64,000 nucleotides of DNA from Candidatus Helarchaeota archaeon (GTDB lineage: Archaea; Asgardarchaeota; Lokiarchaeia; Helarchaeales; JABXJV01): contig JABXJV010000276.1 of the NCBI GenBank assembly GCA_013375355.1, positions 1 to 64,000 on the forward strand, written 5' to 3'. Position numbers and translations under genes: made by a program. Below, piece by piece: positions 43,071-55,884 of the stretch (positions are counted from its first letter, which is position 1; every line of letters begins with the position of its first letter). The notes under the pieces were generated by a model that was given only the letters and a program-made list of their open reading frames with translations, was not told the DNA's origin and did not search any database.

Positions 43071-43172
43071 TGCTCTGACCGGGATTCGAACCCGGGTCGA
43101 AGGGTTTCTCTTTACTGTAGAAATACTGTAATCGAGAGCCCTTTATGCTTGGCCGTGCTACACCATCAGAGC
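43071..43172 (-). tRNA. tRNA-Glu (anticodon CUC) with intron
   Basis: The minus strand folds as a full cloverleaf: acceptor GCTCTGA/TCAGAGC with discriminator A (43071), D stem GTGT/GCAT, anticodon stem AAGGG/CCCTT, T arm CCGGG-TTCGAAT-CCCGG. The anticodon CTC is at 43134-43136. The loop is interrupted after position 37 by a 27-nt intron. The mature tRNA is 75 nt, and CCA is not encoded (CCT follows). The D arm GTGTAGCACGGCC matches archaeal tRNA-Glu. Confidence 0.93.
43106..43132 (-). other. tRNA-Glu intron, canonical BHB, 27 nt
   Basis: The intron lies between tRNA positions 37 and 38. The BHB consists of the anticodon stem as outer helix, a 4-bp central helix (CTCT 43135-43138 with AGAG 43108-43111), 3-nt bulges CGA and AAA, and an inner hairpin beginning TTAC/GTAA. 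Cutting after the second base of each bulge leaves a 7-base anticodon loop. Confidence 0.9.
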
Positions 43173-47028: not shown

Positions 47029-48122
47029 TTAAAAATTCCAATAAGGACTAAAAACTTCTTTTATCTTATCGATCATTTTATTATTGTACTCTACTATTCC
47101 TTCTTCAATTTTAGGAGTATCATCTATAAATTCTATACCTAATTCTCCAAGAACGGATATTTCAGTTAAAATCCCCCGAGATAGTGATTTTAAATCATAA
47201 CCACCTTCAAGTAAAATCACAATTTTCCCATCACAGACTTTTTTTACCCCTTCTTTTACCTTTTTAATTATTTCTCCATATCCTGGTATCGTTATATTTA
47301 GTTGTGTTATGGGGTCAGAAAAATGAGTGTCGAATCCTGCTGAAACTAGAACAATATCAGGTTTAAATTGATTGATGATTGGAATGAATAATTCATCAAT
47401 ACCCTTTAGAAATTGAGCATCACCAGCACGTGGAACCATTGGTAAATTCATATTATATCCCTTTCCCTCTTCTTCGCCTATCTCATATATGTAACCTGTC
47501 CCAGGATAGAGTGTTCGCGGGTGTTGATGAAAATCAAATAAAAAAACATCTGGATCTCGATATAGAATTTGCGAGGTTCCATTACCTGCGTATATGCTTA
47601 AAAAAGAATGTTTCTTTTCTAATGTGCATCATGGTCAAAAATTAAGACTTTATTGACCTCTTCAAACCTCGCAATTAAAGATCTTGCAACAATGGCAATA
47701 TTATTAAATAAACAAAAGCCTCTAGCAGTACCTGGTCCAGCATGATGTCCAGGAGGACGGATCAAACAAAAAGCATTGTCAATTTCCCCTTTTATAACCA
47801 TCTCACCTGCTTGTATTGCTCCTCCAACAGCTAATAAAGCGACATTGTAGCTATCTGGAGAAACTAGTGTATCAGCATCAAGCCAGCCCCCACCACTTAA
47901 ACATTTTTCTTTAACTTTTTCAATATAAAATTCTTTGTGAACTCTTTGAATTTCCTCAATAGGTGCTGGATTTGGAGAAATCTTAACGATATTAGGATGC
48001 TCAAAAACACTGTATTCATTTAATAAATCGACTGTGGCAATTAATCTTTTTTTATTTTCGACATGATCTCCAGTATCATGTTTTAAATAGTCTTCATGAT
48101 ATAATATTCCAGTCTTTATCAT
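47029..48122 (-). CDS. HDAC-family deacetylase, interrupted by a 32-nt BHB intron
   Basis: Exon 1 is 48122-47624, exon 2 is 47591-47029; joined, they encode 353 residues. Motifs are GILYHEDYL, RPPGHHAGP (active-site His pair), LIFDHDAHAGNGT (zinc ligands Asp and His), YPGTG, SAGFDTHFSDP (zinc Asp) and LEGGYDL. The intron falls exactly in DHDAH-AGNG, and unspliced reading stops right after DHDAH. ATG 48122 follows GAGGT; the frame extends further up without a ribosome-binding site. Relatives include AcuC-like and class II HDAC-like enzymes acting on acetyl-lysine or acetylpolyamines. First gene of the tgtA-Sm-thermosome operon. Confidence 0.88.
47592..47623 (-). other. Pre-mRNA BHB intron in the deacetylase gene, 32 nt
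   Basis: On the minus strand: central helix ATGC (47626-47629) with GCAT (47594-47597), 3-nt bulges ACA (47623-47625) and ATA (47591-47593), and an 11-bp inner helix (47612-47622 with 47598-47608, one G-U) closed by a 3-base loop. The outer helix is weak (one G-C and one G-U before mismatches). Cuts after the second base of each bulge remove 32 nt and join GAT GCA C to AC GCA GGT, restoring DAHAG. The intron carries TAG in the upstream frame. Confidence 0.88.
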
Positions 48123-48220
48123 AAATTTTACCTCTGGACTTTTCATTTTTAATTTATATTTCCCAATTTTTATGATTTTATATGTTTTTTGTAAAAATCT
48201 ATTTTTGTATTTCAAAGTTT

Positions 48221-55069: not shown

Positions 55070-55884
55070 ATGGCACTTTTTAAACAAGTCCCAGCTGATT
55101 GGTTAATTAAGGATGGAATAAGAAGAGATAATAGAAAAATTGATGAATTAAGACCAATTTCATTGGAAATGGGATTATTAACAAAAGCAGATGGTTCTGC
55201 TTTAATTAATATGGGAAAAAATAAAATTTTGGGCGCAGTTTATGGACCGCGTGAAGTTCACCCTCGTCATTTAGCCCGTCAAGATGCGGCAGTTTTGCGA
55301 GTTCTTTATCGCATGGCTACGTTCGCTTAAATTATGCCAAGTGAATAATTTGGAATAAAGTAGATGAGAGAAAATCTCCTGCCCCATCTAGAAGGGAAGT
55401 CGAACTTTCGTTAATTTTAAGACAAGCTTTGGAATCATCCATATTTCTTGAATATTATCCAAAAACTATAATAGATATATATATCCAAGTCCTTTGTGCA
55501 GATGGTGGTACACGTTGTGCTGCTGTTACTGCAGCATCGTTAGCTCTAGCAGATGCTGGAATATCATTACGCGACCTTGTTTGTGGTGTAGCAGTAGGAA
55601 AAATCGCAAATCCTGATCCCCCCACCTTAGTCCTAGATTTATCGGATGTTGAAGATAAAGAAGGTTCAGGAGATTTACCAGTTGCGATGATGCCACGATC
55701 TAAAAGATATACACTTTTACAATTTGATGGACGAATAACATTTGATGAAATGCGTAAAGCCTTGGATCTTGCTGAAAAGGGAACCGAAAAAATTAGTCAA
55801 ATTCAAATTCAGACAATAAAGGAAAAATATAGTCAAATTGATAAAGAAATTGAGACTAAAAGATCAATTGAGGGGGATACATAA
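55070..55884 (+). CDS. rrp41: Exosome catalytic subunit Rrp41, interrupted by a 32-nt BHB intron
   Basis: Exon 1 is 55070-55326 and exon 2 is 55359-55884; joined, they encode 260 residues, the usual Rrp41 length. The junction reads RMATFAVDERKSPAPSRRE, matching the conserved family sequence (PF/FS-x-ER-x-PAPSRRE). Downstream motifs are DGGTRCAAVTAASLALADAG and LVLDLSDVEDKEGSGDLPVA with the active-site acidic residues. Without splicing, translation stops right after MATFA at residue 86. Rrp41 is the phosphorolytic subunit, so splicing would be essential. ATG 55070 has GGTGAT upstream; rrp42 begins at 55884. Confidence 0.93.
55327..55358 (+). other. Pre-mRNA BHB intron in rrp41, 32 nt
   Basis: Full hBHBh' fold: outer helix CTAC (55317-55320) with GTAG (55360-55363); central helix GTTC (55321-55324) with GAAT (55353-55356, one G-U); 3-nt bulges GCT (55325-55327) and AAA (55357-55359); inner helix TAAATTAT with ATAATTTG (55328-55335, 55345-55352, one G-U) and a 9-base loop. 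Cutting after the second base of each bulge removes 55327-55358 and forms a GCA codon, restoring the frame. The intron has an in-frame TAA at once. Confidence 0.93.

What the first reader, a model, noticed from the sequence alone, without database searches (positions are those of the whole stretch)
55317..55363. BHB intron inside the rrp41 mRNA
rrp41 is broken by 32 nt with an immediate stop. The insertion and its flanks fold into a complete bulge-helix-bulge: 4-bp outer helix, 4-bp central helix, two 3-nt bulges and an 8-bp inner hairpin. Excision at the standard cut sites gives RMATFAVDERKSPAPSRRE, the conserved Rrp41 sequence, with no residue lost or gained. A sequencing error cannot explain a 32-nt self-folding insertion. 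BHB introns in archaeal protein genes are known from a few cases, such as cbf5 in Crenarchaeota; I know of none in an exosome subunit.
Basis: partly seen in the sequence, partly recalled or inferred. Interest (0 to 1): 0.95.

Follow-up and report, generated by a model that had tools for sequence, protein, structure and literature searches.

The report
tRNA-type introns in Asgard messenger RNAs
In a likely Asgard archaeon, the gene for an RNA-degrading exosome subunit is interrupted by 32 bases that can fold into the splice signal of archaeal tRNA introns and would be cut out of the messenger RNA by the tRNA-splicing enzymes; nearly the same insert sits in a close relative, which has such inserts in at least four other genes.

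Summary
rrp41 (55070-55884 +) is broken by 32 nt (55327-55358) that, with the flanks, can form a canonical BHB: 4-bp outer, 4-bp central and 8-bp inner helices, two 3-nt bulges. Excision restores a gapless Rrp41. The nearest genome found (G090, an unnamed Asgard) has the same intron with 2 substitutions, both in the loop; both exons are under purifying selection (dN/dS 0.25). It is not alone. A second 32-nt BHB intron interrupts a histone-deacetylase-like gene here (47592-47623 -) and in G090. A scan of 2.38 of about 5.8 Mb of G090 added an EF-2-like paralogue, RNase Z and a PAC2-family gene (26-31 nt). The five fused proteins match Pfam families across the junction; none of 20 control fusions does. 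The EF-2-like intron recurs in G091 at the same codon boundary but is 33 nt, with 6 of 16 shared pairs changed on both sides and none lost. G090 has two EndA genes and RtcB; the window has a tRNA-Glu intron. Sifarchaeum rrp41 has an apparently independent insert 5-6 nt away. Splicing is inferred: no RNA data, and the rrp41 stretch's MFE fold is not the BHB. Archaeal pre-mRNA BHB introns are known (cbf5); the papers I searched describe none in exosome or Asgard genes.

The parts
55070..55326 (+). rrp41 exon 1 (M1 to the first two bases of codon A86)
55327..55358 (+). 32-nt BHB intron of rrp41
   Evidence: the same intron with 2 loop substitutions in G090
55317..55324 (+). exon side of the BHB: outer strand CUAC and central strand GUUC
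55325..55327 (+). 5' bulge GC|U, predicted cut 55326|55327
55328..55352 (+). inner hairpin, 8 bp with a 9-nt loop
55353..55359 (+). central-helix 3' strand GAAU and 3' bulge AA|A, predicted cut 55358|55359
55360..55363 (+). outer-helix 3' strand GUAG (exon 2)
55359..55884 (+). rrp41 exon 2
   Evidence: dN/dS 0.245 against G090
47624..48146 (-). histone-deacetylase-like gene, exon 1 (to ..DHDA and the first base of the H codon)
   Evidence: (PF00850 28-319)
47592..47623 (-). second 32-nt BHB intron: 11-bp inner helix, central AUGC/GCAU, bulges AC|A and AU|A, 2-bp outer helix
   Evidence: same place in G090
47029..47591 (-). histone-deacetylase-like gene, exon 2 (..AGNGTSQI to the stop)
43071..43172 (-). 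tRNA-Glu(CUC) gene with a 27-nt intron at 43106-43132: sign that this genome uses BHB-type tRNA splicing
   Evidence: Rfam; ARAGORN with introns allowed; sequence

Best explanation
The 32 nt at 55327-55358 are likely a bulge-helix-bulge intron in the pre-mRNA of rrp41, which the tRNA-splicing endonuclease EndA would cut in its two 3-nt bulges and a tRNA ligase such as RtcB would seal, restoring the Rrp41 reading frame. Shown: the insert and its possible pairing, the residue-perfect product, the same intron in a sister genome with exons under purifying selection, and genes for two EndA paralogues and RtcB in that sister genome. Inferred: that the BHB forms in the transcript, that EndA and RtcB act on it, and that functional Rrp41 is made from the spliced message. 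It is one of a set: a second gene in the window and three further genes in the sister genome carry introns of 26-32 nt with the same architecture, each inside a segment that encodes a conserved motif; one of them recurs, with a changed hairpin and length, in the next relative.
For: (1) Exact BHB topology; 6 of 200000 letter shuffles match it. (2) G090: same place, 2 differences in 32 nt, both in the loop. HDAC intron: 3 differences, one in the inner helix turning G-U into A-U, two in the loop; a further one, in exon 1, turns an outer-helix U-G into C-G. (3) EF-2-like gene: intron at DTPGH|VD in G090 (31 nt) and G091 (33 nt; 49% identical protein); of 16 pairs present in both, 9 are the same, 1 differs on one side and 6 on both, none is lost; G088 and G089 read DTPGHVDF without an intron. 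The two lengths differ modulo 3. (4) dN/dS 0.25 for rrp41 and 0.23 for HDAC; the 23 codons between the junction and the first possible start of rrp41 exon 2 have 0 nonsynonymous and 2 synonymous differences. (5) The HDAC product DHDAHAGNGTS equals intronless G088. (6) G090 scan: EF-2-like (31 nt), RNase Z (29), PAC2 family (26); 5 of 5 fused proteins match Pfam across the junction, 0 of 10 mirror-topology and 0 of 10 other BHB fusions do. Homologues with no stop inside: rrp41, RNase Z and PAC2 in G088, G089 and G091; HDAC in G088 and G089 (the TGA flagged in G091 is codon 2 of the matched stretch). (7) Two EndA genes and RtcB in G090; tRNA-Glu intron in the window. (8) The 8 other Rrp41-like proteins at 77% identity or more to P0084 are 151-201 aa pieces that begin at or after the junction or read back through it.
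Against: No RNA evidence of splicing. The MFE fold of the rrp41 stretch is not the BHB, in the window or in G090. Of the five G090 stretches, EF-2-like has the BHB exactly as MFE, HDAC and PAC2 have all its pairs plus extra ones, rrp41 and RNase Z fold otherwise. The total count of BHB motifs in G090 does not clearly exceed a mirror-topology control (24 against 22 at score 8 or more with coding flanks), so the set rests on homology, not on motif counts. No near-identical full-length (spliced) Rrp41 is among the best 120 of the protein search. Six of the 8 truncated relatives lie on contigs of 0.9-3.1 kb, where a contig end could also explain truncation.
Confidence: 0.92

Rival explanations
1. 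Programmed ribosomal bypassing: the ribosome hops over a 32-nt hairpin gap, and the RNA is never cut.
For: A short hairpin follows directly on an in-frame stop, as in known bypass elements (recalled), and the MFE fold of the rrp41 stretch is not the BHB.
Against: None of the five introns has a landing triplet equal to the take-off codon (rrp41 GCT/AAA, RNase Z GAA/TAA, EF-2-like CAT/TAA, HDAC CAT/TAC, PAC2 TAT/AAT; my reading of the DNA). In each the exon just before the cut pairs with the 3' end of the intron, as a BHB needs and a bypass hairpin does not. The EF-2-like hairpin has changed both sides of 6 pairs and its length while keeping the BHB.
Confidence: 0.03
2. Pseudogene, assembly or sequencing error: rrp41 is simply broken.
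For: The window alone shows a stop-containing insertion.
Against: The same insertion is in an independent genome (G090); both exons are under purifying selection; the best rrp41 match in G090 is its split copy; five genes show the same architecture.
Confidence: 0.03
3. Split gene: two separate Rrp41 proteins are made from the two ORFs.
For: Gene callers annotate exon 2 alone, e.g. P0124, which by its contig length is G090's own protein.
Against: The first start codon in the exon-2 frame lies 23 codons after the junction, and those codons, which encode VDERKSPAPSRRE, are conserved without any nonsynonymous change. HDAC: first start 46 codons after the junction, dN/dS 0.11 before it.
Confidence: 0.02

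Closest known systems
BHB intron of cbf5 pre-mRNA in Desulfurococcales and Sulfolobales (PMC2738675, passages read; Watanabe 2002 known only through citations there)
   Same: Short intron in a protein gene, BHB-like motif recognised by EndA, codon of a catalytic residue interrupted; sizes of 33-39 bp in some species
   Different: Different genes (rrp41, HDAC-like, EF-2-like, RNase Z, PAC2), Asgard instead of Crenarchaeota, several genes in one genome; splicing was shown for cbf5 in some species but not here
BHB intron in the 5' UTR of HVO_1309, Haloferax volcanii (PMC7714728, passages read)
   Same: EndA substrate in an mRNA
   Different: In a 5' UTR, not a coding sequence; cleavage shown in vitro there
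Archaeal tRNA introns at 37/38 with canonical hBHBh' (Marck and Grosjean 2003, recalled; PMC6379350, passages read)
   Same: 3-4-3 motif, cut after the second bulge base (recalled), hairpin intron, same presumed enzymes; the window's tRNA-Glu has one
   Different: Host RNA is an mRNA; no tRNA body for recognition
Abundant tRNA introns in Atabeyarchaeia and Freyarchaeia (PMC11291895, passages read)
   Same: Asgard archaea rich in introns
   Different: Only tRNA genes in the passages I read; other Asgard lineages

Membership tests
Archaeal EndA-type BHB intron | Two 3-nt bulges on opposite strands around a 4-bp central helix at the exon-intron borders, outer and inner helices present | tested here: met
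   Can be formed exactly; not the MFE fold for rrp41
Archaeal EndA-type BHB intron | Cuts after the second base of each bulge give a functional product | tested here: met
   Gapless Rrp41; motif identical to the intronless relative G088 for HDAC. Function itself was not assayed
Archaeal EndA-type BHB intron | The organism has EndA and a tRNA ligase | tested here: inconclusive
   Window's genome not held; in sister genome G090 two EndA genes and RtcB; tRNA-Glu with intron in the window
Archaeal EndA-type BHB intron | Structure kept by selection among relatives | tested here: met
   rrp41 and HDAC introns, window against G090: 5 differences, 4 in loops, 1 keeping its pair. EF-2-like intron, G090 against G091: 6 of 16 shared pairs changed on both sides, 1 on one, 0 lost. 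Two genomes compared in each case
Archaeal EndA-type BHB intron | Excision and ligation shown on RNA | not testable with these tools
   No RNA data
cbf5-type pre-mRNA intron | Located in cbf5 at the crenarchaeal position | tested here: not met
   The host gene is rrp41
Programmed ribosomal bypass element | Matched take-off and landing codons | tested here: not met
   0 of 5 introns, my reading
Group I or group II intron | Catalytic core | tested here: not met
   32 nt long; the only Rfam gathering hit in the window is a tRNA

The most novel reading that the evidence does not exclude
A lineage of Asgard archaea splices pre-mRNAs of many protein genes with its tRNA-splicing enzymes: 26-33-nt hairpin introns have repeatedly been gained inside catalytic-motif codons of RNA-processing, translation and other genes, so functional Rrp41, RNase Z and EF-2-like proteins would depend on EndA. 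That is an mRNA-splicing regime among the closest known relatives of eukaryotes that does not use a spliceosome.
Probability: 0.6. Interest if true: 0.92.

Novelty: new member of a known kind. Interest (0 to 1): 0.83.

Why it matters
Archaeal pre-mRNA splicing has been treated as nearly a single-gene curiosity: PMC7714728 (2020, passages read) names cbf5 as the only earlier additional example of a BHB intron. Five protein genes in less than half of one Asgard genome would turn it into a recurring mechanism in the lineage nearest eukaryotes, make intron gain by EndA directly testable, and explain why gene callers truncate core genes there (the 8 Rrp41-like proteins nearest to P0084 are pieces). 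An RNA exosome subunit and RNase Z whose own mRNAs need the tRNA-splicing enzyme also suggest a possible regulatory loop (speculation).

Tried and rejected
Searching the window's own genome was impossible. Long match spans looked like insertions, but most seem to reach into the neighbouring rrp42 (compare; not checked one by one). Of the 80 loci, 47 have one alignment of over 40% identity across residue 86, and only L002, the Sifarchaeum record, was flagged there by my filter for stops or gaps. G108 and G109 were flagged for stops inside rrp41, but the stops lie at the C-terminal end. Motif counting alone does not separate real introns from background: BHB 41 against mirror 42, 220 against 185, 24 against 22. 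Mobile-element idea: none of the five intron sequences has a second copy within 3 mismatches in the 2.38 Mb of G090, so there is no sign of a recent repeat family. A further candidate at C1:15617-15581 was rejected because its fusion joins the end of a long ORF to an unrelated tail. In controls 69 and 70 (10 of the 22 mirror hits, and 10 of the 17 BHB hits other than the five introns, taken by score) the fused pieces were at most 140 aa, whereas the five candidates were run full length; one control match, CMD 4-71, ends at the junction. The HDAC exon-2 search cannot serve as evidence of a split gene: its length limits kept full-length homologues out. NCBIfam has no match for the HDAC-like protein, and the PAC2 protein stays below its cut-off there.

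Full report
Observation. rrp41 lies in an exosome/proteasome gene cluster (proteasome alpha subunit, SBDS, Rrp4, Rrp41, Rrp42 and L37Ae, named from the translations by recall). Exon 1 is open from ATG 55070 and meets TAA at 55328; exon 2 is open to 55884. The motif is rare given the exons (6 of 200000 shuffles), but it is not the minimum free-energy fold of the isolated stretch.

Product. Removal of 55327-55358 gives RMATFAVDERKSPAPSRRE. The joined protein scores 322.5 bits with NCBIfam TIGR02065 (Rrp41, cut-off 318.7), matches Pfam RNase_PH over 26-154, across residue 86, and aligns without a gap there to solved chain 2br2_B.

Relatives. No whole genome is held for the window. Among 227 genomes of the Asgard phylum reached through a Lokiarchaeota record, 222 have an Rrp41 match. 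The closest in sequence at this gene, G090, matches with exon 2 only in the printed row (90% identity, residues 86-259); its exon 1 is adjacent (93%) and the intron differs from the window's at two loop positions. G090 belongs to the class that also holds G003, G004 and G005, whose records are titled Lokiarchaeota or Lokiarchaeia; its order holds four genomes here, G088-G091. G091 (67%) has no stop inside its rrp41. The listing was cut, so I do not claim that every other genome lacks an intron. In the protein database the 8 other hits with at least 77% identity to P0084 are short (151-201 aa). P0065, P0084 and P0121 start four residues before VDERK with LRN or MRN; P0122 reads through what looks like a 28-nt version of the intron with the same ends (inferred from protein letters). 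P0124 is, by its contig length, G090's own truncated prediction. Six of the 8 sit on contigs of 0.9-3.1 kb.

Selection. Between window and G090, dN/dS is 0.25 for rrp41 (exons 0.27 and 0.25) and 0.23 for the HDAC-like gene (0.24 and 0.22). The 23 codons between the rrp41 junction and the first possible start codon have no nonsynonymous difference. This suggests that the region after the intron is translated as part of the protein.

A second intron in the window. The histone-deacetylase-like gene on the minus strand is broken at the active-site motif (motif recalled). A 32-nt BHB (47592-47623; 11-bp inner helix, central AUGC/GCAU, only a 2-bp outer helix) restores DHDAHAGNGTS, the sequence of the intronless relative G088; G091 has DHDVHAGNGTS. 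Of the 30 aligned homologue loci outside G090, 26 have HHGNGT and 3 HAGNGT there. G090 carries the intron at the same place; between the two, one change in the inner helix and one in the exon-side outer helix keep pairing.

A conserved intron position with covariation. Checking the stop flagged in G091's EF-2-like gene, I found that it, too, has a BHB insert at exactly DTPGH|VD: 33 nt against 31 in G090, 4-bp outer and central helices, 8-bp inner helix; excision gives DTPGHVDLSPKVSRALRSIDG. Of the 16 pairs present in both, 9 are unchanged (mostly exon-encoded), 1 changed on one side, 6 on both, and none is lost; 2 of 200000 shuffles match the G091 motif. G088 and G089 read DTPGHVDF without an insert. 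Length differs modulo 3 while the protein is kept, and the hairpin has been rewritten while the pairing stands. This new fact is why I raised the confidence from 0.90 to 0.92 and trimmed two rivals by 0.01 each.

Machinery. G090 has two PF01974 EndA genes. One translation has the Tyr-His-Lys arrangement that I recall as catalytic (VYEHGPGIDH..., RKKF), the other lacks the His segment, which would fit a hetero-oligomeric enzyme of the kind linked to relaxed and pre-mRNA substrates in Crenarchaeota (PMC2738675, passages). RtcB is present. The window carries tRNA-Glu(CUC) with a 27-nt intron.

A further rrp41 case. Sifarchaeum (G001; record L002 titled Candidatus Sifarchaeum marinoarchaea) and G180 have a 33-nt insert with an in-frame TGA, 5-6 nucleotides downstream of the window's site depending on the register. 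Its MFE fold in the Sifarchaeum sequence is BHB-like (-18.0 kcal/mol) and excision gives VDERK. The central helix is longer or the outer helix has a mismatch, so it is a relaxed motif. I read it as an independent gain, because position and sequence differ. RtcB was not found in G001 (it is in G180).

Literature. Ten searches of the held open-access library listed no paper that I recognised as describing a BHB intron in an exosome gene or in any Asgard protein gene; I saw listings and abstract starts, and passages of six papers (PMC7714728, PMC12397907, PMC2738675, PMC11291895, PMC6379350, PMC6125680). PMC7714728 names cbf5 as the only earlier additional BHB intron and adds a 5'-UTR case; PMC2738675 says that other putative introns in protein genes had been predicted but not confirmed. 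An XPD/Rad3 case in Crenarchaeota is recalled; one search did not turn it up. Subscription journals and bioRxiv are largely not covered.

Verdict. A real, conserved feature, most likely an EndA-spliced pre-mRNA intron, and one of several in this lineage. The kind is known; the host genes, the phylum and the number per genome are what is new. RNA evidence is still needed.

Noticed in passing
window 47592-47623 (-): Second 32-nt BHB intron, in a histone-deacetylase-like gene, conserved in G090.
   Followed up: yes
window 43106-43132 (-): 27-nt intron in tRNA-Glu(CUC); the first ARAGORN run did not list the gene.
   Followed up: yes
G090 C6:81259-81229 (-), C6:64108-64136 (+), C1:81769-81794 (+): BHB introns in an EF-2-like paralogue, RNase Z and a PAC2-family gene, each inside a segment encoding a conserved motif.
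   Followed up: partly
L311 (G091 EF-2-like gene, codon 94 of the matched stretch): 33-nt BHB intron at the same codon boundary as the 31-nt one of G090, with a rewritten hairpin.
   Followed up: yes
L084 and L120 (Sifarchaeum G001 and G180), rrp41: 33-nt BHB-like insert with an in-frame TGA, 5-6 nucleotides downstream of the window's intron site; looks like an independent gain.
   Followed up: partly
P0065, P0121-P0127 (protein database): The Rrp41-like proteins nearest to P0084 are all truncated near the junction, so the split gene is probably shared by a whole clade and mis-annotated; six sit on short contigs.
   Followed up: partly
G088:C115 and G089:C140: The intronless EF-2-like gene and RNase Z are neighbours there; in G090 both carry introns and lie about 15 kb apart.
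   Followed up: no
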